NCBI GenBank assembly: GCA_035292885.1
Contig: DATDPG010000063.1
Coordinates: forward strand, 1 to 32,394
From: Bdellovibrionota bacterium
Lineage (GTDB): Bacteria > Bdellovibrionota_G > JALEGL01 > DATDPG01
Reading direction: 5' to 3'
DNA length: 32,394 nt
Below the pieces are notes generated by a model. The model saw nothing but the letters and a program-made list of their open reading frames with translations. It did no database searches and was not told the origin of the DNA. Every line of letters starts with the position of its first letter. Position 1 is the first letter of the stretch. The position numbers and the translations under genes were made by a program. Below are positions 2,338 to 32,273 of this stretch, piece after piece.

Positions 2338-3171
2338 ATGGAACGATCACCCGACATTCTTTTTGTCGGACATGTCACCGTGGATCACATTGAAGGGCGA
2401 ACCCAACCGGGGGGATCGGTTCTTTACGGCGCCCGGGTCGCGAAAAAGCTAGGCCTGGACGCCGCTATCTGGACGTCCGCCGCGAACGATTTTTCCTTTC
2501 CGGAAGGAATCACGGTTCAATCGATTCCGTCGCCGGAGACGACGACGTTTACGTTGGAATACGACGAGGTGACACGCGCGCGGAGTTTAGCGTGTCGCCC
2601 GATCGCCGATTCGATCACGAAACCCTTCCTTCCGAAGGCGTTTCGAGACTCACGGAGGGTCTTGATCGCACCGGTGGTGAACGAAGTCGGGCCGGAATGT
2701 GTGACCTGGTTTTCCACACGTTTCGTGGGCCTAACACCTCAAGGGTGGTTTCGCGACCGAGATTCAAAGGGAGACGTTACGTTCGGTGCGCGCAAGTACA
2801 ACACGCTCCCGCGAAAGGTCTCACTGGTGGTGGTCAGTCGGGAAGATATTTCAGGCGACCCGTCGGCTTGGGATTGGCTCAAATCCATTGCCGGCGTGGC
2901 TGTCGTGACGGATGGTCGAAAGGGCTACACGCTTTCCGAAGGTAAAAAAGAAGAATTCTATCCGCCGCCGTACGTGGCGAAAGAGATCGATCCCACGGGA
3001 GCGGGCGACACGTTCGCGACCGCCATGCTCATCGCCCTATCCGAAGGGGCGGATGCTCTGGAGGCGGCCCGGTTTGGCTCCGCGGCGGCCTCTTTCGTCG
3101 TCGAAAAGCGCGGCTTCGAAGGGCTGCCCGATCGAGACCGCGTGCGTCGGAGACTGCATCTAAGCACCTAA
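2338..3171 (+). CDS. PfkB-family carbohydrate/nucleoside kinase
   Basis: PfkB-family kinases phosphorylate sugars or nucleosides with ATP. The 277-residue product starts with the usual strand (DILFVGHVTVDHI), has a Gly-rich substrate loop (PGGSVLYGARVAKKLG) and the signature DPTGAGDTFATA at about 218-229, with Asp224 as catalytic base in the GAGD anion hole. It is slightly short and diverged in the lid region, so the substrate cannot be assigned. The start directly abuts the stop of the upstream lipoprotein gene, indicating coupling. Confidence 0.85.
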   Translation: MERSPDILFVGHVTVDHIEGRTQPGGSVLYGARVAKKLGLDAAIWTSAANDFSFPEGITVQSIPSPETTTFTLEYDEVTRARSLACRPIADSITKPFLPKAFRDSRRVLIAPVVNEVGPECVTWFSTRFVGLTPQGWFRDRDSKGDVTFGARKYNTLPRKVSLVVVSREDISGDPSAWDWLKSIAGVAVVTDGRKGYTLSEGKKEEFYPPPYVAKEIDPTGAGDTFATAMLIALSEGADALEAARFGSAAASFVVEKRGFEGLPDRDRVRRRLHLST

Positions 3172-3220
3172 AATCAGAGAAGGATTATTCATAGCGGAGA
3201 AAAAAAGTTCGGCAGACTGA

Positions 3221-3226
3221 TATAAT
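3221..3226 (+). promoter_or_regulatory. Candidate -10 box (TATAAT)
   Basis: A perfect TATAAT lies 27 nt upstream of the ATG at 3253 in the 81-bp gap after the PfkB gene. No good -35 hexamer is present 16-18 nt upstream (AGAAAA there), so this is a weak promoter call. Nothing else is evident in the gap. Confidence 0.3.
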
Positions 3227-3252
3227 GGGGAATACGCCCCCGGACCCCTTCG

Positions 3253-4347
3253 ATGGGCGAAAAGATGAAACGCAACCGATCCAAAGGAGATCCCGACGAC
3301 ACGCTGATCATGCGTAAGCCGTCCGATCGCAGAAAGCGGGGCCGAACGGAGGAATCGGGCGAGACGGAAGCCGCGGCCGACCACACCGTCTCCGATCTGG
3401 CGAACGAGTTCCTCGGAAGTCTCGCGGAACCCGGCGATCGCGATCCGATCTTAGACGACCGCACACGGGTCGGGGCCGATACGCATTTGGGGAAGGTCTA
3501 CCATCCGGTTTTGGCGGGAATGCTGGCGTTTTTCGTGTGGGGGGCCGGCCTTCTCTACGTCGGCCATCCGATCGCCGCCAGCGTGGTTCTCCTCATTCTT
3601 ATCTCCTCCTTTGTCCTCTTCACTTCCCTGGGAGGCGTCGCGCCGTTGTGGCTGGGGGACCGTTTTCTTCAAGATGTCGGCTGGAGGTTTCCTCTGGCGG
3701 AGAGTCTCGCGTTCGTCGGTTGCGAATTGGTTCTCCTCTGGTGGATAACGATTGTGGTGTCGGCGTCCATTGCGAAAAATTCACTCCTGGAGGATTTTCA
3801 TCCGGATTCGGAGTCTATCTGGCCGTTTTTTGCGCTGCCGTTGCCGACGCTCAATTTTTATCTTCGCGGAAGGTTTTGGCGAGGGCATCTATTTACGCTG
3901 TCGCTGTTCGTTTTACTGGCCGCCGGTATCGCGGTTCGAAAGCTCTGGATCGCGGCCCCTTTTCTTCGTCTCGAAGAAGTCGGCCGCCAAGAATCTTTCT
4001 TCATGATGGTTTGCACGCTGGCGGCGCTCGGCGCGCTGGGAACGGCGCTCGGTTTTTTCGGCTCTTTTGTCGGGACGTTTCGTGAAATGGGTTGGATCCG
4101 TGGAGCGCGGGAGGGTGCCGAGAGTGAAATTAAATTCGTACTTCTCGGTCTGTTGTTCATCGGCGGGACGTTCTTGTACACACTCTTCGGACCCCCGGGC
4201 GCGGTCATTCGCCATGATGGGCGTAATTTCGCAAACGAATTGGCCCGGCGAGGTTACGTGCGGTCGGCGGAAAAAATTCGAAGTCCGCTATTGGTTTGGG
4301 AACGGACCAACGAAAGTGTCCAAGATCATTTGTCGCTTTTGAAATAA
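3253..4347 (+). CDS. Polytopic membrane protein of unknown function with charged N-terminal tail
   Basis: I do not recognise this 364-residue protein. Residues 1-75 are strongly charged and probably disordered (repeated RR/KR, EE). The rest contains about six hydrophobic segments, at roughly 87-106, 108-125, 152-172, 212-230, 248-272 and 292-310. The C-terminal 50 residues are soluble and basic. An alternative ATG at 3265 (MKRNRSKG) would remove four residues. It is transcribed toward the convergent MltD gene with only 16 bp between stops. Confidence 0.6.
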   Translation: MGEKMKRNRSKGDPDDTLIMRKPSDRRKRGRTEESGETEAAADHTVSDLANEFLGSLAEPGDRDPILDDRTRVGADTHLGKVYHPVLAGMLAFFVWGAGLLYVGHPIAASVVLLILISSFVLFTSLGGVAPLWLGDRFLQDVGWRFPLAESLAFVGCELVLLWWITIVVSASIAKNSLLEDFHPDSESIWPFFALPLPTLNFYLRGRFWRGHLFTLSLFVLLAAGIAVRKLWIAAPFLRLEEVGRQESFFMMVCTLAALGALGTALGFFGSFVGTFREMGWIRGAREGAESEIKFVLLGLLFIGGTFLYTLFGPPGAVIRHDGRNFANELARRGYVRSAEKIRSPLLVWERTNESVQDHLSLLK

Positions 4348-4363
4348 ACCCGGGGCGCTTGAA

Positions 4364-6046
4364 TTATAGAGGCATCGCCCGGATCTTCAGTTCCAGGCCG
4401 GGGTGGATCGTGTCATCCGCTGCAAGTCGGTTCCATTTCATGATATCGGCCGTACTCACGCCGAACTTCTTCGCGATATTCCAAAGAGTGTCTCCAGCTT
4501 GAACGCGGTAGGTCGTCCATCCCTTATCAGACGGATTGGACGCAACCTGCGGAGCCGATTCCTTTGAAGGAACGAGCATTGCGGGATCGGATCGAGCATA
4601 CAGCTTTAGTTTTTGTCCCGGCCGGACCGATGACCCATGACTGAGGTTGTTCCATTCGCGGATTTCCGTGACGGTCACGCCGAACCTGCGTGAGATCGAC
4701 CACAAGGTATCGCCCGGCCGGATCACGTAATTCGATTTTTGTCCTGCCGGCGGTTTGTAAGCGACGCGGCGGACGGTTTCTTCGGACCCGCGATAGGGAA
4801 CAGCGAGCTGAAGTCCGGGCTTTACCCGGTGGGAAGGGAGTCGGTTAAACGATGCAAGCGCCGTGGTGTTTACACCGTATCGCCGGGCGATCGTGGAGAG
4901 CGTTTCGCCGCGCTTGACGACGTGGCGAGCGACCGACGTGACCGATTTTCTCCGAATTTCCGGATAGGCCGCGACAAACTTCTCTTTGTATCTCTTGGGA
5001 ACATTTAGTTCGTAATTCGGCATGTCCGGCGGCGTGATGTCCCGGCGCAGCTCTGGATTGAGTTCCGTGAGCGTATCGTGGGAGATTCCGAGGACACCGG
5101 CGATCACCGAAAGTTCCGTCGGCTCCGGGACCAAGACCTTGTCGTATTCCAGCGGATCTTCGTACTCGATCCCCTCAAATCCATACCGTTCCGGCTCTTT
5201 CGCGATCAGGGCGGCCGCGATCATTTTGGGGACGTAATCTTTGGTTTCCGTTTTCAGGTACCGATGCTTCGACATCTCCCAAAAATCTTCGGTGGAGTAG
5301 CGCCGGATGGCCTTTTCGATCTTTCCGGCTCCGGCGTTATAGCTCGCGGCGGCCAAATACCAGGAGTTGAATTGATCGTAGAGATCTTTTAGATGTTGGG
5401 CCGCGGCGATCGACGATTTTTCGGGATCGCGCCGTTCATCCACCCACCAGGTGACCCGAAGGCCGTATCGGCTTCCGGTACCCTTGATGAATTGCCAAGG
5501 GCCGCTCGCGCGTGCGCGGGAATACGCATACGGCTTGAATCCGCTCTCGATCATCGAAAGATAGACCAGATCTTCGGGGAGGCCGTTTTCACGCAGAATT
5601 CTGCGCATCATCGGAATGTATTTTTCCGAACGCGCCAGCCAGGCGGTAAAGACCTTTCGTCCGTTCGTCTGAAAATAGCGAATCCATTTTTCGACGTGGG
5701 CGTTGACGACGATCGGAATGTCGAACGTGGGAATCTTCGTTTCGTCGATCTTTCCGATTTCGGCTTCGGCCTCCTCCCCGATAATTTTTTCGACCGCTTT
5801 CGACGGCTCCTTTTCCTCGGCAAGTTCCGTGGGCGTGGTGCCTTCGTAGAAGGGTGTGACCTCTTTTTCCGTCGAAGAGGTTTCAGAGGCGGCGGGAGGC
5901 GCCTTCGGACAGAGCTCGGAAATCGTATTCACGCAAGCCGGTGTCGCGGGGGCTTTGGCCGCCGTTTCGGGGGCTTTGTGATCGGCGCAAGCGACCAGGC
6001 TTACGCAAGCTGCCAACAGCGCATTTTTCAACGATCGAAGCTTCAT
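4364..6046 (-). CDS. mltD: Membrane-bound lytic murein transglycosylase D with three LysM domains
   Basis: MltD cleaves the MurNAc-GlcNAc bond to 1,6-anhydro products from the inner face of the outer membrane. The 560-residue product has a lipoprotein signal with lipobox LVAC (Cys20), a Pro/Glu/Ala-rich spacer (20-105), and an SLT goose-lysozyme-like domain (about 150-275) with the motifs SMIESGF (catalytic Glu167), SGPWQFI and ASYNAG. Three LysM peptidoglycan-binding modules follow at about 375-418, 440-483 and 513-556 (each with a GDTL or GETL strand). Length and architecture are typical of the family. An antisense open frame runs over its N-terminal half but is a codon-bias shadow. Confidence 0.95.
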   Translation of the reverse strand: MKLRSLKNALLAACVSLVACADHKAPETAAKAPATPACVNTISELCPKAPPAASETSSTEKEVTPFYEGTTPTELAEEKEPSKAVEKIIGEEAEAEIGKIDETKIPTFDIPIVVNAHVEKWIRYFQTNGRKVFTAWLARSEKYIPMMRRILRENGLPEDLVYLSMIESGFKPYAYSRARASGPWQFIKGTGSRYGLRVTWWVDERRDPEKSSIAAAQHLKDLYDQFNSWYLAAASYNAGAGKIEKAIRRYSTEDFWEMSKHRYLKTETKDYVPKMIAAALIAKEPERYGFEGIEYEDPLEYDKVLVPEPTELSVIAGVLGISHDTLTELNPELRRDITPPDMPNYELNVPKRYKEKFVAAYPEIRRKSVTSVARHVVKRGETLSTIARRYGVNTTALASFNRLPSHRVKPGLQLAVPYRGSEETVRRVAYKPPAGQKSNYVIRPGDTLWSISRRFGVTVTEIREWNNLSHGSSVRPGQKLKLYARSDPAMLVPSKESAPQVASNPSDKGWTTYRVQAGDTLWNIAKKFGVSTADIMKWNRLAADDTIHPGLELKIRAMPL

Positions 6047-9041: not shown

Positions 9042-9233
9042 AGCCCGGATCCGACAATATTTGTTTGGTGAAAACCGCTAAAGCTCGCGCGATAGCGCGC
9101 CATCCGCGGCCGTGCTCGTCCTCGTCAATGCTCACTTACTGTTAAGTAAGCTGCGCTTGACTCGGCCTGCGCTTGGCCACGGCTGACGCACTCTCGCGCA
9201 TTTTCCCTCAAAAAATATTGTCGGATCCGGGCT
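9042..9233. mobile_element. 192-bp MITE-like element with perfect 21-bp terminal inverted repeats
   Basis: Ends 9042-9062 and 9213-9233 are perfect inverted copies (AGCCCGGATCCGACAATAT plus two bases). TGG occurs directly on both outer sides (9039-9041 and 9234-9236), fitting a 3-bp target duplication. The interior has no gene and is itself an imperfect palindrome centred on CTTACT/AGTAAG, extended by GTCAA...TTGAC, so one strand would fold into a single long hairpin. It was probably mobilised by a transposase encoded elsewhere. Confidence 0.75.
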
Positions 9234-12737: not shown

Positions 12738-13445
12738 CTAGTGGATGCGAGAGGCGGAGTCAAGGTTCGAGGCGCTTCGTGCAACCGCAGGCTCTCGAAC
12801 CAATGTTCCAAAATTCTCGAAAAGAGATCCGGCGAGATACGGCGTGTTTTTGCGGTCGGATCTCCGGCGCTTTCGCAGGTAACTGTTGATGATCTTTCCT
12901 TGGGCGTTTCGATGTTGATGCGGAAAATCGAGATTCATCACATATCGCCCGACACCGTGGTGCACATTATGAATGAACGTCACCGTCCCGTCCGAATCGA
13001 CCTCTTCCACGATGCCGATGTGCGTGAGGTCATCGTTGAGCAGACCGTCGCGGTCCCGATCGTAGGTGTTGGAAAAAAAGATTAGATCGCCTTGTCCGGG
13101 AGGCGTCATGGTGTAAAGAGTTCCGTAGCGTCCCACAAACTCGCGGACGATGCGGACGCCGTTGCCCCGGATCTCCAGTTCGCTTGCCCCGCCGAACACA
13201 TCGATGCCGTTTTTCAACAACACGGCGCCTACCAGGCCGCTGCAATCAAACGGAAATCGCCGCCCATCGACCATAAGATCGTGAGCGTAAATGAAGTTGC
13301 GGGCGTCCTGTACGATCCGCCCCCGTTTCGCCCCGGTTTCCAAGCCGTCCCACTCCGCCATATGCGGTTTGGGGCCGAAATGACAAGCCGAAAGCGCGAC
13401 AAGGAACAGGACTGCCATTCCGAGCAGAGCCGACCGACGTCGCAT
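12738..13445 (-). CDS. NlpC/P60-family peptidoglycan endopeptidase lipoprotein
   Basis: NlpC/P60 cysteine peptidases cleave cell-wall stem peptides. The 235-residue product has a basic signal peptide with lipobox LSAC (Cys21), then a papain-like domain: catalytic Cys68 in PFDCSGLV, catalytic His142 in LTHIGIVEEV, and a likely third residue in FIHNVHH. An insert containing TYDRDRDGLLNDD precedes the His strand. The C-terminal 40 residues are basic and not part of the fold. It precedes the leucine dehydrogenase-type gene on the same strand with a 55-bp gap. With RlpA and MltD it is the third wall hydrolase in 14 kb. Confidence 0.88.
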   Translation of the reverse strand: MRRRSALLGMAVLFLVALSACHFGPKPHMAEWDGLETGAKRGRIVQDARNFIYAHDLMVDGRRFPFDCSGLVGAVLLKNGIDVFGGASELEIRGNGVRIVREFVGRYGTLYTMTPPGQGDLIFFSNTYDRDRDGLLNDDLTHIGIVEEVDSDGTVTFIHNVHHGVGRYVMNLDFPHQHRNAQGKIINSYLRKRRRSDRKNTPYLAGSLFENFGTLVREPAVARSASNLDSASRIH

Positions 13446-13483
13446 GCGGCAAAAAGTGTAGCAGCTTCCGGCTTGACATTCTA

Positions 13484-13858
13484 ATGAACCGCGGCGAAAT
13501 GGAGTCCGTGGACGCCAAAGACTGCCTCTTTTGCCGGGTCATCAAGCGGGAACTGGAATCCCAGGTGGTTTATGAAGACGACCTCGCGGTGGCTTTCCAA
13601 GATATCAACCCCCAAGCCCCGGTTCACCTTCTGGTCGTTCCTCGAAAACACATTCCGTCGCTCGCCGTAACGGAGGAGGCTGACGAAGCGTTGCTCGGCC
13701 ATGTCTTTATGGTCGCGCGCAAACTAGCGGAACGGGAGAATCTCAATAAGAACGGCTACCGAGTTGTCCTCAATACCGGCAGTTACGCCGGCCAGACGGT
13801 CTTTCATATTCACGTTCATTTATTGGGCGGTCGCTCTTTTCATTGGCCGCCGGGATAA
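13484..13858 (+). CDS. HIT-family (HINT-like) nucleotide hydrolase
   Basis: HINT-type HIT proteins hydrolyse purine nucleoside phosphoramidates and aminoacyl-AMP. The product is 124 residues (or 119 from an ATG at 13499) with DCLFCRVIKRE at the start, the AFQDINPQAPVHLLVVPRKHI strand, NTGSYAGQTVFHIHVHLLGG with the histidine triad, and an aromatic C-terminus. All these are normal for HINT. The gene is followed by a 35-nt repeat and then argS; a link to aminoacyl-adenylate housekeeping is plausible but only positional. Confidence 0.93.
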   Translation: MNRGEMESVDAKDCLFCRVIKRELESQVVYEDDLAVAFQDINPQAPVHLLVVPRKHIPSLAVTEEADEALLGHVFMVARKLAERENLNKNGYRVVLNTGSYAGQTVFHIHVHLLGGRSFHWPPG

Positions 13859-13870
13859 GACCGGCTCGCC

Positions 13871-13905
13871 GGCCGTCTATCAAGATATGTCGGAGTCGGG
13901 GCACT
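13871..13905 (+). repeat. 35-nt dispersed repeat, copy 2
   Basis: This copy matches 834-868 at 32 of 35 positions in the same orientation. It fills the gap between the HIT stop and the chosen argS TTG start (13909) and follows a short hairpin CCGGCTCGCCGG (13861-13872). Its location just before a start codon is compatible with a leader element, but the sequence is also read through by an open argS frame. Confidence 0.7.
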
Positions 13906-17378: not shown

Positions 17379-17452
17379 TGATCGTAGAACCGAGAATTTA
17401 CCCATATCGAATCGCGATGCAGTTCGCAGCTGACTCTCTGGCCTAAGAGCGG

Positions 17453-17605
<153 letters not shown>

Positions 17606-17741
17606 TCGCTGCGGCCTAGCTGCGGCGGAAAAAATCCTTCGCTAGGTCAATGGCGCAGTCAGGCGATTGCCAACCTTCCACCGCTCCAGCGAGAGGCACA
17701 GAAATTTATCATTCAGCAGGGGGAGGCGCAACCCTTGGAGA

Positions 17742-20004: not shown

Positions 20005-20397
20005 CTACCAAATCATTTCAATTCCCGTCAGAGTCCTGATTTCCCGGTCCTCCGTAACCAGCGGAACTCCCAGAGACTTCGCCGTGGCGGCGATGACGCG
20101 ATCCGCAGGATCCGCCAAACGGTCTGGAAAGAGGGTGCTTTCAAAGACAATTTCGGGAGTCATGGGATGAATCACGATCCGTGAGCGGGTTACGGCGCTT
20201 TCCAGCCACGAAAGAAAAGATCCCGAAATCTCGATCCTCGCTTTTTTGGAAAGCATCGCGATTTCCAATAAGGAAATGTCCGATATACCCAGTCCCCCTT
20301 TTAAAGCTTGCTTTTCGACTCTCCTTTTTGCAGCTTCGCCCAGCTGAGACGGATTACCGATCATCCAGAGCCAGGTATACGTATCAAGAAGAATCAA
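20005..20397 (-). CDS. PIN-domain toxin, VapC-like
   Basis: VapC toxins are Mg-dependent RNases, usually cutting tRNA or rRNA. The product contains the PIN acidic residues in LLDTYTWLWM (first Asp), ISLLEIAML (Glu) and FPDRLADPADRVIAATA followed by LVTEDREI. I place the start at the TTG at 20397 because it overlaps the antitoxin stop as TTGA and begins the fold directly; an earlier TTG at 20415 adds six residues. This arrangement matches type II modules with the antitoxin first. Confidence 0.85.
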   Translation of the reverse strand: MILLDTYTWLWMIGNPSQLGEAAKRRVEKQALKGGLGISDISLLEIAMLSKKARIEISGSFLSWLESAVTRSRIVIHPMTPEIVFESTLFPDRLADPADRVIAATAKSLGVPLVTEDREIRTLTGIEMIW

Positions 20398-20540
20398 GGC
20401 CGGGCTGCGTCCCAATGATCAGGATCCATCGCCGGGCTCAGGATATCGCCCGTGATGTTGAAGGAGTCTTTCATGCATCCCATAACCGTGGTTCCGGAGA
20501 TTTCGTCGGCGGGGATGTCAAGTGTGGTGCCCCTCGTCAT
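20394..20540 (-). CDS. VapB-like antitoxin (48 aa)
   Basis: A 48-codon ORF, MTRGTTLDIPADEISGTT at the start, ends GDILSPAMDPDHWDAARP. The pattern (short Thr-rich strand, PADE helix, ITGDILSP, acidic D/E-W-D/E-A tail) is that of the small antitoxin commonly upstream of PIN toxins, in which the C-terminal segment wraps the toxin active site. It overlaps the toxin start by 4 nt. No clear ribosome-binding site is visible; a run of A/T lies just upstream. Confidence 0.7.
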   Translation of the reverse strand: MTRGTTLDIPADEISGTTVMGCMKDSFNITGDILSPAMDPDHWDAARP

Positions 20541-20611
20541 CAGAAGTTGGAACCGGGCTGTAACGGAAAAAAAATATTGCCCATTTAAGCCAACCCCCGC
20601 CTACCTTAAAT

Positions 20612-20893
20612 TCAGTCTCGATAGGCCTCTTTTCGATGGTGAACAGCGGTCATAAATATTACGAATGATTTTTCGTCAATTTCGTAAAAGAAGCGCCAAT
20701 CGCCAACTCGATATCGCCATGTCGGTGGTTCCCAGTTCCGAAGTCTTTTTATTTGTGGACCAAAATGAGGTTCTGTCTCCAGCTGAGGGTAAACCGTCTT
20801 ATTGAGTTTTTCGACAATTCTTTGGGAACCTCCCCTCAAAACGTCGTTCAAATTCTTTGTGAAGTTCTCGGTCTCAAAGATCCGATATTTCAA
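20612..20893 (-). CDS. RelE/ParE-superfamily toxin
   Basis: The 93-residue product has the RelE fold pattern: YRIFETENFTKNLNDV, a Leu-rich helix pair, PQIKRLRNW, then WRYRVGDWRFFYEIDEK and a C-terminal strand ending HHRKEAYRD. RelE-type toxins cleave mRNA in the ribosomal A site; ParE-type toxins inhibit gyrase. The basic YRYRVGD-type core with a late HxR/K segment favours RelE. Its ATG overlaps the antitoxin stop (ATGA, 20890-20893). Confidence 0.88.
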   Translation of the reverse strand: MKYRIFETENFTKNLNDVLRGGSQRIVEKLNKTVYPQLETEPHFGPQIKRLRNWEPPTWRYRVGDWRFFYEIDEKSFVIFMTAVHHRKEAYRD

Positions 20894-24402: not shown

Positions 24403-25219
24403 CCTAAAAGGAAATTTCAAGAATGGGAGGGTTGTACGGAAGGATGAAGCCCGGGGGTTGGGAGGGAATATAGACGCGACCGATGTGAAAAGGGAGACGA
24501 ACGAGGATGGAGAAGCGGGAAATAGGGGAGGATAGCGAGAGCCGAGGCTCTCTCGGGGCATGAACTTGAGCGGAGTCGCCGGACTTTGAATAAGAGAATG
24601 CGTTACCCGGCGATTCGTTGATCGAAATCGGCGTTGGATTCTTCTCGGACTTGGTTAAAGTCGAAGGATTGGTAGGGGCTTGCTTCTTCGGCGGCCATGA
24701 GAAAAGGAATCTTCCCGTGCCGGTCGAAGAAGGACTCGACCGGTTTTTGCGGCGGAGCGCGAGAGGCTTGGGGAACGAGGATGAAAATTTCCGCGGGATG
24801 CGAGAGGAAGGCGGCGAGCTTCATTTCGTTGTGGCAGCGGGGGCAGTCGATCGGCAGGGTTCCAAAGATCCGGGCGAGGAGGGTGGCCCAGCGGGGCGTG
24901 AGGGGTTTCTCCGAAATTCGTTGGACCTGCGCTTTCGTTTTCAGGCCCAGGAATCGCCGGGTGGCGGAGGCATAGAGGCCGGCGTACCGGCGATAATGTT
25001 GATACGTATTCGGGATGTGAACGGTCAGATGCGCGAGGAATTCTACGGGTGAAAAGTTCAGGGTGTTCCCTTTCCGAGTCCGCAGGGAAATCGAGTCTTG
25101 GGTGTACGTCAATTGGGATAACGAGACGGGGATTCGAAAGGCATAGGCCAAGCGGCGGGTGAGCTGTTCCCGGTCGGAGGCGGGGAACGGATCGGAATGA
25201 TGGACATGGATACCGGAAT
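24403..25219 (-). mobile_element. IS91-like element, copy 1 (5'-truncated)
   Basis: The segment starts at CCTAAAAGGAAATTTCAAG, exactly where similarity with the second copy (29172) begins, so this is the conserved element end downstream of the transposase. A hairpin GAGAGCC-GA-GGCTCTC lies at 24537-24552 between the end and the transposase stop, as expected for an IS91-type origin end. The other end is lost: transposase similarity stops where a truncated meaB begins at about 25220. Confidence 0.75.
24603..25219 (-). pseudogene. IS91-family transposase, C-terminal part
   Basis: About 205 residues are readable on the minus strand: HSGIHVHHSDPFPASDREQL, then LAYAFRIPVSLSQLTY, FSPVEFLAHLTVHIPNTYQHYRRYAG, and the zinc-finger-like DCPRCHNEMK near the end. 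These match the C-terminal half of IS91/IS801-type rolling-circle transposases. The catalytic N-terminal half (HUH and Y2 motifs) is missing because the gene is fused head-on to meaB. The open frame continues to 25322 only antisense to meaB. Confidence 0.75.
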
Positions 25220-25750
25220 GTCGAAACCGTTGGCGCAGGGCAGAGCGAGGTCGATATCGTCGACATTGTGGACACGGTGGTGGTTGTGCTTGGCCCGGAA
25301 ACGGGCGACGCGGTGCAGACACTCAAAGCAGGAATCTTGGAGATCGCCGATGTCTTTGTCGTGAACAAGAAAGATGTAGCGGGAGCCGAGCGGGTCGTCC
25401 ATGACATCGAATCCATGTTGTCGCTCAAGCCGACGGAAAATCGGTGGACACGGCCCGTCTTGCTCACGGAGGCGCGAAGCGGGGAGGGCGTCGAGGCTCT
25501 TTGGCAGGCGATCGAACGTCACCATTCGGAACTCGATCGGCGGGGGATCGAACCGAACGAACGGCTTCGGCGGCACCTCCACGAACTGAATGAAATTGTG
25601 GAAACTCGATTCACGTCGGAAACAATGGCCCGGCTCCAAAAAGATGAGGATCTTAAGGCGCGCCTTTCTAAGGAGGCCAGACCTAATCTTTATGCGATGG
25701 CGGAGAAGATCTTGTCGGATTCAGCCCGGCCGACTTCGCGGCGAAAATAA
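25220..25750 (+). pseudogene. meaB: MeaB/ArgK-family GTPase, N-terminally truncated
   Basis: MeaB is the G3E GTPase chaperone that protects and reloads methylmalonyl-CoA mutase. From 25220 the frame reads VETVGAGQSEVDIVDIVDT, the MeaB switch region (ETVGVGQSE), then FVVNKKD (G4), VLLTEARSGEGVEALWQAI (G5 region) and the C-terminal dimerisation arm. The Walker A (G1) motif and everything before it are missing, replaced by the IS91-like fragment. A 161-codon ORF can start at GTG 25268 but lacks nucleotide binding. The last residues (SARPTSRRK) are encoded by a 28-nt repeat also found at 28778. Confidence 0.85.
25722..25749 (+). repeat. 28-nt direct repeat, copy A (end of meaB fragment)
   Basis: Core CCCGGCCGACTTCGCGGCG followed by AAAATA. 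It matches 28778-28805 with two mismatches in the same orientation, 3056 bp away, so the pair brackets the LamG/PKD gene. It contains the near-palindrome TTCGCGGCGAA. Confidence 0.75.
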
Positions 25751-25758
25751 CGGCTCTG

Positions 25759-28608
25759 TTATCGAGGATCTGGTCTCACATTGGAGCGGAGTCGAAGTGA
25801 ACCCGCACTTACTAGCATGATGAAAATGAGAAAGAAGAGTTCGCGGGAAGATGTTGTGGCGCTGCCGCAGCCGTACAAATGCGTAACCACGGTGTCACTC
25901 TGGGAAGAGGCGTTCAAGTCCGGATCGATCAAGAACGTGGCGGGGTCGCCCTGAAGAAGACGCAAACTTCCCCCCATTTCATCGACCATCCAACACTCGG
26001 GCGCGCCGTTGGGGGTGGACAGGCAGATGTTATTCGTCGATCCCAGGACCAAGCAGGCCGAGATCTCAGCGGGGCTGGGCGATTCGTCATTGAGGCTCAG
26101 AAGAAAACTGCCGCGCAATTCCGTAGGTAAAGAGAAGGGCTCGCCCGACTCGATCTCGACGGCCTCGATTTGGTAAAGCGAACAGACTTCCGAGGTCAAC
26201 GTCGTGCTCGCGCCGATCGACGTGACGCTCACCCCCGTTTTCCCCACGACCTGGATGAGGAGGCAGGCCGTGGCTGTATTGCCCTGGCCGTCGTCGACAA
26301 CGACACAGGCGGTGAATTTCCCTTTGGAATAGGTATGAACCTGTTCGGGTGTCCCGGCGACGTTGACGGTCCCGTCACCGAAGAACCAGCGATAGGTTAA
26401 AGGATCGCCGTTGGGATCGGTGGCCGCCGACATAAAGTTGACCTGTAGGGGAGTTTTTCCCGTAGCCGGCGAGGCGGAGAGGGAAACCCACGGAGATCCC
26501 GGGACAGGTGTAGGCGTCGGTGTTGGAGAGGGCGTTGCAGTCGGCGTGGGCGTCGGCGTGACGATCGGAGTTCGTGCCGAGAAAAGAGCTTGGATATCGC
26601 TCGGACTCAGCGCCCCCTGATAGACTCGAATCTCATCCAGCGAGCCAGCAAAGTAAGGTGTTACGGCCTGCGGGTACTGTCCGAAAACAAGATTCGTCGT
26701 CGTGGAAGGCGCACCCGATGTTCCGGTCCACGGTAGAGACGCCTTCTGAATCCCATCGACATACAACTTCCCGCCGGTCGAATCGACCACGAACACAACG
26801 AAATGCCACTGATTGTCTGCGTAACCGGAAGTCCGCAAGCTGCAAGTGCCGCCGTCCCAGACATAATCGGACCCATCGCGGAAATACCAAGCGCATAGGT
26901 CGCCCCCGTTAACAAACAGTTGGTAGCCGTTGAGAGACGCAGGAAGATATTTGTTCACGATCCCATTCAGGCCGGAAGCGGAAGTTTTTATCCACGTCGC
27001 AAGCGAAAGCGGAAAGGCATTTAAGTCGCTTGCGTGTGTCACATTGACGTAGTCGTCCACGCCGTCCAACGCGAGTGCCGGGTAACCATCGGAGGAAGTC
27101 CATGTGGGACCATTCAACAACGAACCGTTGTGGCTGTTGCCGGAAGAATCGGATGCCGTGACACCGCTTCCTTCGTTCAAATTCCAATACCCGAGAAGGA
27201 CAGGGTTTGTGGGAGTTGGAACGGGAGTCGGTGTTGGTGTGACAGTTGGAGTCGCCGTAGGAGTCGGAGTCGGAGTAGGCGTGACGCCGGTCAAAAGCTC
27301 ACACGGAACTTTAACGAGGAAAGCATCTTGGCGTGGGCCTCCCATGTTGCTGGTCCAGACCATGTACTCGCCGGTCACGTCGATGTTGGCTTTGGGCATT
27401 TTGGAGTAGTCGTCCCCTCCCCCTGCGGCGTCGAGGTTCGTCATGACGGGGGCGACAATTAAAATGTTGTTGGTTTGGGAACCGTCGAGACGGAAACAAA
27501 TAATCTCATTTGAGCGAGATAGATTATTCCGGGTAGCTCCACTTCCACAGGCGAATTGTTGAGTGGAGGGAACGCCTGGTCTCGCATTTCCATGAGTGAT
27601 GTGGTTTGGAGCCGGTACCCACTCCATGCTGTACTGCACGAGTAACTTACTGAGTGGATTCGCAAAAAAATCCCAAACATACATGGCATTTGCTTTGGGA
27701 TCCCAGTTGTCAGGGCCAACGCCGTATCCGTATCCCATATCCAGATGTCCCAAGGCACCGTCCTGATCCCAAACCATTCGTTCCGACCCGTTGCTCAAAT
27801 CGAAAATCCGCATTTCAAGATCGTATTGACCGTCGATATTTTCCAGCGACATCAGCCATCGGCCGCTTTTATCCACGTGGCATTCGTCGAAATCCCTGAT
27901 TTTCGGGAAGTACTGATATTGGCGGGTGTCTTCGTGGTAAACGAGGCAACCGAGCATCTCAGCGGTTCCATTATCTCGAAGCGAGACTGAATGAACCCGG
28001 TCGTCATCGCTCGAATGGAGTTGCCAGATGTAATTGTTCGGATATGGAGTGCTGACGTCAAAAACCGTTTCGAACTGCTTGGCCAGTACGTCGTAGCGAA
28101 GCATCCGAGGACCATCGTTCAGGTAGATTTTGGTTGGTTTCGTGCCGCTGAAATACCACCCTTCGCCGCTGTTCCAGCTATAGCCGCTGGAGGAATCAAA
28201 AATAGGGCCCAAGTTTTGAACTGCTTTGGTTAACTTGTTGTAACTAAATAGCGTAACTCCCGCTCCTCCGACGTTCCGGTTCGTTCCCAGAAAGATCAAC
28301 ATCGTGTCGCTTCCGACATGGTTGTTGATATTGCGCCAGTAGGAGTAGCCGACGGAAAATACGCAGTCGGTTTCGCCGATACAATCACTGCTGTTGGTCA
28401 GTCGAATCCCCTCCGTATTATAAGGAGAGGGGAAGACGAATGATCCGCGACCGGTGGGTAGAAATTGTTGGATCTGCACTGCGCTTAAGAGAGGGCGGGT
28501 GATATTCGTGGTCGACGATTCTAGGAAGCCCCCAGCCGCTAGAACATTGCCGGCAGCGGCAATAGCCCCTAAAAATGAACACGTTCCGAAGCGCCACGGA
28601 CCCGACAA
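25759..28608 (-). CDS. Large surface protein: propeller-like domain, LamG domain, PKD domain, C-terminal sorting-type tail
   Basis: The 949-residue product starts at TTG 28608 with AAGGAGG five nt upstream, so the start is firm. Order: signal peptide (1-24); a region of about 400 residues (40-440) with repeated W/Y-D/G strand patterns (RMLRYDVLAKQFETV, EMRIFDLSNGSERMVW), probably a beta-propeller; a Thr-Pro linker (443-467); a LamG/concanavalin-like domain (about 470-675: YWNLNEGSG, ALDGVDDYV, LDEIRVYQGALS); a second Thr-Pro linker (683-703); a PKD domain (about 705-790: DPLTYRWFFGDG, HTYSKGKF); a final beta-rich part; and a tail of GCG (913-915), hydrophobic helix (924-936) and Arg residues. 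LamG and PKD domains commonly bind glycans. The gene is bracketed by 28-nt direct repeats. Confidence 0.85.
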   Translation of the reverse strand: MSGPWRFGTCSFLGAIAAAGNVLAAGGFLESSTTNITRPLLSAVQIQQFLPTGRGSFVFPSPYNTEGIRLTNSSDCIGETDCVFSVGYSYWRNINNHVGSDTMLIFLGTNRNVGGAGVTLFSYNKLTKAVQNLGPIFDSSSGYSWNSGEGWYFSGTKPTKIYLNDGPRMLRYDVLAKQFETVFDVSTPYPNNYIWQLHSSDDDRVHSVSLRDNGTAEMLGCLVYHEDTRQYQYFPKIRDFDECHVDKSGRWLMSLENIDGQYDLEMRIFDLSNGSERMVWDQDGALGHLDMGYGYGVGPDNWDPKANAMYVWDFFANPLSKLLVQYSMEWVPAPNHITHGNARPGVPSTQQFACGSGATRNNLSRSNEIICFRLDGSQTNNILIVAPVMTNLDAAGGGDDYSKMPKANIDVTGEYMVWTSNMGGPRQDAFLVKVPCELLTGVTPTPTPTPTATPTVTPTPTPVPTPTNPVLLGYWNLNEGSGVTASDSSGNSHNGSLLNGPTWTSSDGYPALALDGVDDYVNVTHASDLNAFPLSLATWIKTSASGLNGIVNKYLPASLNGYQLFVNGGDLCAWYFRDGSDYVWDGGTCSLRTSGYADNQWHFVVFVVDSTGGKLYVDGIQKASLPWTGTSGAPSTTTNLVFGQYPQAVTPYFAGSLDEIRVYQGALSPSDIQALFSARTPIVTPTPTPTATPSPTPTPTPVPGSPWVSLSASPATGKTPLQVNFMSAATDPNGDPLTYRWFFGDGTVNVAGTPEQVHTYSKGKFTACVVVDDGQGNTATACLLIQVVGKTGVSVTSIGASTTLTSEVCSLYQIEAVEIESGEPFSLPTELRGSFLLSLNDESPSPAEISACLVLGSTNNICLSTPNGAPECWMVDEMGGSLRLLQGDPATFLIDPDLNASSQSDTVVTHLYGCGSATTSSRELFFLIFIMLVSAGSLRLRSNVRPDPR

Positions 28609-28776
28609 AACCCCTCCTTACAGACGAAGGGCTCTGCTACTGCAAGTTCGTAGCCACGCGTATTTTTACGTAACAAGTTGGATTTTAAGTATTAGTTTAA
28701 GGAACAAAAGTTCCCTAATGAAAGTTTTGCGCACTGCGCCGATACGTTTTGCAGTTTCCGGTGAAGCTTGGCGCAA

Positions 28777-29171
28777 TCAACCCGGCCGGCTTCGCGGCGA
28801 AAATAGGGGCTTGGCGCCGCCTTTCCAGCGCGCATAACGCCCCAATGCGAGCAGCGGAAAATAAAGACGATAATAATCGTAGCGAAGGTAGAAGTGTCGG
28901 GGAAAACCGGTTCCAGTCCATTCCGGCTCGTCCCAACTCCCATCCGCTTTCTGGCTTGCGATGAGCCATCGAACGCCGCGCTCGATCGCTTTCTCCTGTT
29001 TCTGTTTGCAGGCCAAAAGACCGATCAATCCCCACGCCGTCTGGCTCGCTGTCGACGTGCCCAGGGGAACGTAACATCCTTTTTCGTATGATTCACACGA
29101 CTCGCCCCATCCGCCATCGGAATTTTGAATCGACGTGAGCCAAACGCCCGCCTTGCGAACATATTCGGCAG
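28777..29171 (-). pseudogene. shc: Squalene-hopene cyclase, C-terminal fragment
   Basis: SHC cyclises squalene to hopene in hopanoid synthesis. The minus frame encodes about 131 residues: WLTSIQNSDGGWGESCESYE (a QW motif), GTSTASQTAWGLIGLLA, WLIASQKADGSWDEPEWTGT (second QW motif), then GFPRHFYLRYDYYRLYFPLL, the canonical SHC C-terminus. The catalytic DXDD region and all upstream parts are absent. The gene is cut at 29171/29172 by the second IS91-like copy. The last residues (LFSPRSRPG) are encoded by copy B of the 28-nt repeat. Confidence 0.92.
28778..28805 (+). repeat. 28-nt direct repeat, copy B (end of SHC fragment)
   Basis: It matches copy A (25722-25749) at 26 of 28 positions, same orientation. 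It overlaps the final codons of the SHC fragment on the opposite strand. The stretch 28609-28776 between this gene end and the LamG/PKD gene start contains only the latter's ribosome-binding site and AT-rich sequence that may hold its promoter. Confidence 0.75.
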
Positions 29172-29503
29172 CCTAAAAGGAAATTTCAAGAATGGGAGGA
29201 TTGTACGGAAGGATGAAGCCCGGGGGTTGGGAGGGAATATAGACGCGACCGATGTGAAAAGGGAGACGAACGAGGATGGAGAAGCGGGAAATAGGGGAGG
29301 ATAGAGAGAGCCGAGGCTCACTCGGGGCATGAACTTGAGCGGATTCGCCGGACTTTGAATAAGAGATTGCGTTACCCGGCGATTCGTTGATCGAAATCGG
29401 CGTTGGATTCTTCTCGGACCTGGCTAAAGTCGAAGGATTCGTAGGGCCTCGGTTCCTCGGCCGCGACGAGGAAGGGAGTCTTCCCGTGCCGATCGAAGAA
29501 GGA
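29172..29503 (-). mobile_element. IS91-like element, copy 2 (fragment)
   Basis: The segment is nearly identical to 24403-24734, starting at the same CCTAAAAGG end and including the transposase C-terminal codons (ADFDQRIAG at the end). Similarity stops at 29503 after GAAGAAGGA. The hairpin near the end is degraded (GAGCC/GGCTC). Only about 330 bp remain, so it is not autonomous. It lies in the same orientation as copy 1. Confidence 0.85.
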
Positions 29504-29608
29504 TTTAATAATTTTCTGGTTCGATGACCCGCACGGCGCTTGCGTCGTACTGCGCCCGTTTCAAGGCCATTCCAGAATAGGAAACCATAAACCCACGAAG
29601 CTTGCCAT

Positions 29609-30864: not shown

Positions 30865-32273
30865 TTACCTGACTCCGTTACCCTTCCTGCCACGTCGAGC
30901 CGCGAACAACACCCATAGACCTACGCCCAGCAAATATAGCGAAAGAGTGTGAAACGAGGCCGGCCATGCGCACCCCGCCGTTCCCCTTGAAAAGTGGATC
31001 TCAATGGACCTGCTTCCTTCACATAAATCTCCCTCACCGTCGCCGTTCTTGTCGGATTGATCCGGATCGAAAATGAGAGGACAGGTATCCTCTTCGTCCA
31101 GCACGCTGTCCCCATCGTCGTCTTCATCACATACGTCACCAATGCGGTCGCCGTCGGAATCCGCCTGGCGTTCATTCTGAACAAATGGACAGTTGTCCGA
31201 TGGGTCCACGACGTTGTCGTTGTCGTCATCTTCATCGCACACATTTCCAGCGGAGTCCTCGTCGTCATTGAGCTGGACTGGATTACTTGCTTCCACGCAA
31301 TTGTCGTCCGTACTGGAACGCCATCGCCATCCAAGTCATTCTGGCAAGCATCTCCCCGTCCGTTACCGTCCAAATCGGTTTGGTCCGGATTCGGAACCAG
31401 TCTGCAATTGTCCACTTCATCCGATATGCCGTCGTTGTCGTCGTCCGCGTCACACGCGTCGCCTGACCCGTCTTGATCGGCGTCAAGTTGAGTTACGTTT
31501 GCAACCGTCCGGCAGTTGTCGTCTCCGTCACTCAGCTGATCCTCATCGGAGTCCGAATCCTGGAAATCGGGTGTGCGGTCGCCATCCGTGTCGACAGCCG
31601 GAGTGAGGAGATCCGAATCCCCCGCTTCCACAGCGTCCGTGATTCCGTCTTCATCCGAATCGACGTCGGACCGGTCTGGATTTCCATCTTGGTCAGTATC
31701 TACTGTGGTGCCCGGGTACGATTCATCCACGTCGTAAATGAAATCGCCGTCCTCATCGGTTTCCGGGGGAACCGAGGTCGCATCGGCTGGATTTGTAGAG
31801 GCCAGAAATTCTCGAAGCTCGCTAAAACCGTCTTGATCAAAATCGTCGGCAGAGTTGTTGACCACATCCGGATCGAGGAGTGCGTTCTTGTACGCGGGGT
31901 TGGCGTCTCCATCCCCTCGAATAAATCCAATTCCATAATAAATCTCGAAACCGTCCGGAATACGGTCATCGTCGGTATCCACACTCCCGTTTTCCGTTGT
32001 GAATACAGCTTCCCCAACCTCGTCGGGTAGTCCGGCTGAATGGACTTTTACGACTACCGACTCCGTAACCGGAATCGCCGGGTTTTGAACGTCCGCCACG
32101 GAAACGGTGACATTCGTACCTTGTAGAATCGGTACGGTTGGCGTGATGGTAATGGTTTTGGTTATGTTGCTGGAAACGACGGTAAAGGGAACAGAAAGGC
32201 CGGATATCACAACACCAATATCGGCAGGATCGATGTTTCCGAGATCGAACCTCTTAGGACGGTATAGCGGACG
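30865..32273 (-). pseudogene. Thrombospondin type 3 repeat surface protein, frameshifted and 5'-truncated
   Basis: Two overlapping minus frames form one protein. The upstream frame (GTG at 32210; open back to 32273 without a start) has Ig-like strands, then many DxDxDGxxD calcium-binding repeats ([33 protein letters not shown]). Around 31309 the frame fails (GDGVPVRTT) and the adjacent frame continues the same repeats ([23 protein letters not shown]), consistent with one missing base. The C-terminus is [20 protein letters not shown], hydrophobic, then RRGRKGNGVR. TSP3 repeats make Ca-stabilised rods in outer-surface proteins. The 5' end was probably removed by the IS110-like element at the window edge. 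Confidence 0.8.

What the first reader, a model, noticed from the sequence alone, without database searches (positions are those of the whole stretch)
25722..28805. Direct 28-nt repeats bracket the LamG/PKD surface-protein gene
Copies at 25722-25749 and 28778-28805 (26 of 28 identical, same orientation) coincide with the last codons of two unrelated truncated genes, meaB on one strand and shc on the other. Only the surface-protein gene lies between. Ending two unrelated reading frames at the same sequence suggests a recombination or insertion site, with the gene as exchangeable cargo.
Basis: seen in the sequence. Interest (0 to 1): 0.55.

Follow-up and report, generated by a model that had tools for sequence, protein, structure and literature searches.

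The report
Duplicated gene-end overlap around inserted gene
The short repeat on both sides of the surface-protein gene is the doubled tail-to-tail overlap of two neighbouring housekeeping genes, left when the surface gene entered their junction, rather than a mobile element's own recognition sequence.

Summary
The repeat is real and not chance, but it is not a free-standing recombination sequence. It is the 30-nt antisense overlap between the stop codons of convergent meaB (+) and shc (-). Both copies (25721-25750, 28777-28806; 27 of 30 identical) encode both tails: meaB ..RPxSRRK* on + and shc PLFSPRSRPG* on -. In a relative of the same order (G001), intact meaB and shc face each other with a 79-nt overlap and nothing between, so the order is inherited and the LamG/PKD gene is the insertion. 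Neither gene is truncated at the repeat. Both lack their 5' parts, which meet IS91-like remnants at 25208 and 29172. The block is a second, diverged copy (70% and 78% amino-acid identity) of the genome's full-length meaB (C108) and shc (C106). Those two are also separated: each keeps a copy of the overlap and borders other accessory genes (Ig/kelch, Fic, SpvB/TcdB-like, Rhs). So the junction seems to have received inserts at least twice, duplicating the overlap each time. Only such insertions spare both genes, so selection explains the pattern. Favoured route: homology-assisted integration or local duplication. No integrase or dif-like site was seen. An ordinary but instructive variant of insertion between core genes.

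The parts
24403..25208 (-). IS91-like element remnant A: element 3' end at 24403, C-terminal part of a Y2 transposase, cut at 25208 where the meaB fragment begins
   Evidence: Pfam Y2_Tnp E 3e-8; NCBIfam IS91 transposase E 6e-8 but below cut-off; same terminus in 5 copies in the genome
25209..25750 (+). meaB fragment: 3' part of the MeaB GTPase gene with a complete 3' end, 5' part missing
   Evidence: Pfam MeaB E 5e-27; TIGR00750; 69.9% identical over 176 aa to the C108 meaB
   Evidence: encodes RPTSRRK* on + and PLFSPRSRPG* on -
25759..28608 (-). inserted cargo: 949-aa LamG/PKD protein gene, the only gene between the copies
   Evidence: Pfam Laminin_G_3 E 3e-22, PKD_4 E 2e-11; no match in the 4 other genomes of the phylum, and only partial matches elsewhere in its own genome
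28747..28776 (+). eroded remnant of the meaB end left of overlap copy 2
   Evidence: anchored alignment to the meaB end, 0 of 1000 shuffles as good; alignment
   Evidence: 27 of 30 identical to copy 1; encodes both tails
28777..29171 (-). shc fragment: last ~130 codons of squalene-hopene cyclase with a complete 3' end, 5' part missing
   Evidence: TIGR01507 E 7e-46; 77.7% identical over 130 aa to the C106 shc
29172..29518 (-). IS91-like element remnant B: same 3' terminus as remnant A, directly abutting the shc fragment
   Evidence: 95% identical to remnant A over 300 nt; terminus shared with C50, C10, C22; 48 aa of transposase at 81%

Best explanation
The repeat is the doubled 3'-end overlap of two convergent core genes. 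In the ancestor meaB and shc faced each other and shared their last ~30 nt on opposite strands (shown in related form in G001). A LamG/PKD surface-protein gene entered that junction together with a second copy of the overlap, so that both meaB and shc kept complete reading frames (inferred). The favoured route is recombination assisted by homology: incoming DNA that carried the cargo next to an already separated meaB-remnant/overlap/shc end recombined in shc, while the other side was joined without homology just after the meaB stop. A local tandem duplication of the junction followed by erosion gives nearly the same picture. Selection filters the outcome, because an insertion that does not duplicate the overlap truncates meaB or shc. 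The same junction was filled a second time, on the native copy (meaB on C108, shc on C106), with other accessory genes. Later the window's block, a diverged extra copy probably acquired from a relative, was cut at both 5' ends by IS91-like elements, so meaB' and shc' here are remnants.
For: Both copies encode both tails; all 4 differences in the 11 shared shc codons are synonymous, while 4 of the 5 changed codons in the meaB frame are not. G001: meaB 2475-3494 (+) and shc 3416-5497 (-) on an 8.1-kb contig, 79-nt overlap, nothing between. Native C108 meaB and C106 shc each carry the overlap (28 of 30 identical to each other); C108 keeps an shc shred beyond the meaB stop (26 of 29 nt match shc sequence about 173 nt away from the overlap in C106); C106 keeps a meaB-tail remnant beyond shc (1 of 1000 shuffles as good). 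Flanking core genes fit one split locus: coaE-purQ-meaB on C108 and shc-selA-HNH-TPR-LysM on C106, versus coaE-purQ-meaB-shc-HNH in G001. Cargo next to the split ends: Ig/kelch, Fic, SpvB/TcdB-like, Rhs. Of 7 differences in 45 nt, copy 2 is the changed one at 5, copy 1 at 1, and 1 is unresolved, with C108/C106 as outgroup. Fragments and native copies diverged under constraint (dS 1.87 and 1.32, dN 0.23 and 0.17). argS on the window's contig is the only argS found in the genome, so the contig belongs there.
Against: The empty site rests on 1 of 4 relatives of the phylum: G002 and G003 have meaB but no shc match, and G004 has both genes on different contigs. C108 and C106 were not shown to be adjacent (no end overlap), so the size and unity of the native insert are inferred. 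A third overlap copy on C106 (R2) starts within 1 nt of the shc stop and has no meaB remnant, which homology-assisted integration does not predict in particular. The duplicated lengths differ between loci. How the DNA was joined is not directly visible.
Confidence: 0.75

Rival explanations
1. Site-specific integration: the overlap is an attachment core like those of elements that target gene 3' ends and carry a replacement tail; the cargo units are integrase-less cassettes moved in trans, in series at this junction.
For: Five direct copies of one core at the split meaB/shc ends; single-gene units between copies (LamG in the window; Fic between two copies on C106); the gene tails are restored.
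Against: No recombinase gene lies in the LamG segment or in the Fic segment. The shared stretch differs in extent between loci and is eroded at its edges. The core is not a palindromic recombinase site (12 of 30 positions). Copies were found only at meaB/shc.
Confidence: 0.12
2. Tandem duplication of the meaB-shc junction came first, giving a dispensable spacer of redundant gene tails; cargo genes accumulated there afterwards by unrelated events.
For: The native locus keeps extra eroded shc pieces: the C108 shred and a ~155-nt second tail on C106 that is nearly identical to the shc end.
Against: In the window copy 1 ends within 5 nt of the meaB stop, with no detectable shc remnant beyond it.
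Confidence: 0.3
3. Target-site duplication by a transposase.
For: Direct repeat flanking an insert; IS remnants nearby.
Against: At about 60 nt the duplication is far longer than usual transposase target duplications (general knowledge); IS91-like elements make none (general knowledge); no transposase lies between the copies.
Confidence: 0.03
4. Assembly artefact: the block from another genome was misjoined at IS91-like repeats.
For: The block is bounded on both sides by IS91-like sequence, and other contigs (C22, C10, C50) end inside such elements.
Against: argS on the same contig is single-copy; base composition of the block matches the contig; no long repeat lies between meaB' and shc', so the finding inside the block would stand.
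Confidence: 0.08

Closest known systems
Small variable segments between core genes of bacteria, some flanked by direct repeats, explained in part by homology-assisted illegitimate recombination (PMC2884548; passages read)
   Same: An accessory insert between two conserved genes, direct repeats at its base, different content at one site.
   Different: The repeat is the coding overlap of the two flanking genes; in that paper most flanking repeats are under 30 bp and are discussed as sites of deletion by slippage.
Integrative elements that target gene 3' ends and restore the tail (recalled, no call)
   Same: A direct repeat made of a gene's 3' end on both sides of the insert, with the gene kept intact.
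   Different: No integrase, variable extent of the repeat, and two convergent genes are preserved at once.
IS91-family elements (Y2 transposase)
   Same: Y2_Tnp domain and a shared element terminus beside the block.
   Different: They bound the outer, 5' sides of the block; they do not coincide with the 28-nt repeat.

Membership tests
Convergent overlapping gene pair (meaB/shc) | the two frames share 3' sequence on opposite strands in an intact relative | tested here: met
   G001, 79-nt overlap; 1 of 4 relatives
Convergent overlapping gene pair (meaB/shc) | each repeat copy encodes both tails | tested here: met
Integrative element with att sites | integrase within the flanked segment | tested here: not met
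   a single LamG/PKD gene between the copies
Integrative element with att sites | core of constant extent | tested here: not met
   extent differs between loci and fades at its edges
dif/Xer site | partly palindromic 28-bp site (recalled) | tested here: not met
   12 of 30 positions match the reverse complement; no comparison with a dif model was run
IS91 family (flanking remnants) | Y2 transposase domain | tested here: met
   Pfam Y2_Tnp 34.3 bits, cut-off 20.9
IS91 family (flanking remnants) | full-length family transposase over the curated cut-off | tested here: not met
   NF033538 32.1 bits, cut-off 125, fragment only; hence called IS91-like
IS91 family (flanking remnants) | GAAC/CTTG target next to the element end (recalled) | tested here: not met
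   the bases before the shared terminus differ in all 5 copies and are neither
Variable segment between core genes | site empty in a relative | tested here: met
   G001

The most novel reading that the evidence does not exclude
The antisense overlap of a convergent core gene pair acts as a reusable landing site: incoming DNA that carries the same overlap recombines there, both genes keep their tails, and surface, Fic and Tc/Rhs-like genes are swapped between related species at this one junction without any dedicated enzyme.
Probability: 0.2. Interest if true: 0.5.

Novelty: new variant of a known kind. Interest (0 to 1): 0.33.

Why it matters
It shows how a striking direct repeat around a 'cargo' gene can arise from gene anatomy and selection alone: when two convergent genes overlap, only insertions that double the overlap are tolerated. 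That gives a simple, testable prediction for insert hotspots between overlapping convergent genes, and a warning against reading such repeats as att sites.

Tried and rejected
Scattered genome-wide repeat: rejected, 2 places at up to 3 mismatches. Transposase target duplication: rejected on length and content. dif/Xer-like site: core not palindromic. IS91-type target beside the element ends: not seen. Common origin of the window insert and the native insert: no substantial similarity between the cargoes (best 40 nt at 80%, E 3e-4; no tblastn hit). Paper searches listed nothing that I recognised as a duplicated antisense overlap or a meaB/shc junction; only PMC2884548 was opened, by passages. 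G004's locus L065 was fetched but its neighbour genes were not read.

Full report
What was claimed.

Observation. The repeat is present as stated. The 25-base core with up to 3 mismatches occurs only at these two places in the 3.1-Mb, 214-contig genome, and none of 100 shuffles of the window had it. Between the copies lies one gene of 949 aa with Laminin_G_3 and PKD domains.

What the repeat is. Read stop to stop it is 30 nt (25721-25750; 28777-28806; 27 of 30 identical). On the + strand each copy ends the meaB frame (LSDSARPTSRRK*, LAQSTRPASRRK*); on the - strand each ends the shc frame (EPLFSPRSRPG*, KPLFSPRSRPG*). It is therefore the antisense overlap of two convergent genes, present twice. 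In 11 shc codons the copies differ at 4, all synonymous; in 13 meaB-frame codons they differ at 5, of which 4 change the residue and 1 is the stop. With the other loci as outgroup, of 7 differences in 45 nt copy 2 is the changed one at 5, copy 1 at 1, and 1 is unresolved. This fits copy 2 having been freed from the meaB constraint but held by shc. A meaB remnant continues about 30 nt left of copy 2 (0 of 1000 shuffles as good), whereas right of copy 1 nothing of shc remains beyond chance (108 of 1000).

Ancestral order. Of the 4 other genomes held for this phylum, G001 and G004 have shc, and all 4 have meaB. In G001 meaB and shc are convergent, overlap by 79 nt, and have nothing between them; this is the empty site. 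In G004 they lie on different contigs, and G002 and G003 gave no shc match. So the ancestral order rests on one relative plus this genome's own remnants.

The genome's other copies. The full-length meaB is on C108 in the order coaE-purQ-meaB, and the full-length shc on C106 beside selA, HNH, TPR and LysM genes; in G001 coaE-purQ-meaB-shc-HNH is one run (names of the G001 genes by likeness to these). C108 has the overlap and, beyond the meaB stop, an shc shred with an internal deletion. C106 has the overlap and, beyond the shc stop, a meaB-tail remnant (1 of 1000 shuffles as good), then a Fic gene, then a second ~155-nt shc tail, then an Ig/kelch gene. C108 and C106 both run into large SpvB/TcdB-like or Rhs-like genes at their ends. 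They may face each other across one insert, but their ends do not overlap and the link is unproven.

Two events. Within a locus the copies resemble each other more (window 38 of 45; C108/C106 42 of 45) than across loci (32 to 36 of 45), and the cargoes are unrelated. This suggests two separate splittings of the same junction, unless the copies were homogenised within loci.

Origin of the window block. Its meaB and shc pieces are 69.9% and 77.7% identical in protein to the native ones, with dS 1.87 and 1.32 and dN 0.23 and 0.17. They diverged under selection and lost their 5' parts later. The cuts coincide with IS91-like sequence: at 25208 with a Y2 transposase fragment, and at 29172 with a terminus shared by five copies in the genome. 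argS on the same contig is the only match in the genome, so the contig is not foreign.

Mechanism. Shown: the overlap, its duplication, the insert, the empty relative, and a second split in the same genome. Inferred: homology-assisted integration, or local duplication followed by erosion. Selection explains why the overlap is always doubled: any other insertion would truncate one of the genes. Homology-assisted illegitimate recombination is a described route for variable segments (PMC2884548, passages). A dedicated site-specific system is less likely: no recombinase in the segment, a shared stretch of varying extent, and a non-palindromic core.

Verdict. Observation confirmed; interpretation partly supported. 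The site is an insertion junction, but the repeat is inherited gene anatomy. Interest is moderate to low, raised by the recurrence at one junction.

Noticed in passing
24403-24702 and 29172-29471: 300-nt direct repeat (95%) that is the 3' end of an IS91-like element; the same terminus is found on contigs C50, C10 and C22.
   Followed up: partly
L066:11909-13372 and 13396-13548 (contig C106): A Fic-domain gene sits between the full shc gene and a second, nearly identical ~155-nt shc tail: another cargo gene bracketed by shc ends.
   Followed up: partly
C108 right end (L067) and C106 right end (L066, L086): Large genes with SpvB/TcdB-like domains (C108) and Rhs/fn3 domains (C106) run off both contig ends.
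   Followed up: no
25759-25880 and 30865-31000: The LamG/PKD protein and the protein next to the thrombospondin-type-3 repeats both end in a hydrophobic stretch followed by basic residues, like a C-terminal surface anchor (seen by eye, not tested).
   Followed up: no
830-868 and 13867-13905; 9042-9074 and 9201-9233; 17448-17484 and 17574-17610: Short dispersed direct and inverted repeats of 33-39 nt, 84-90% alike, possibly small repeat families.
   Followed up: no
20005-20893: PIN-domain gene next to a second small gene, resembling a toxin-antitoxin locus (only the PIN domain was tested).
   Followed up: no
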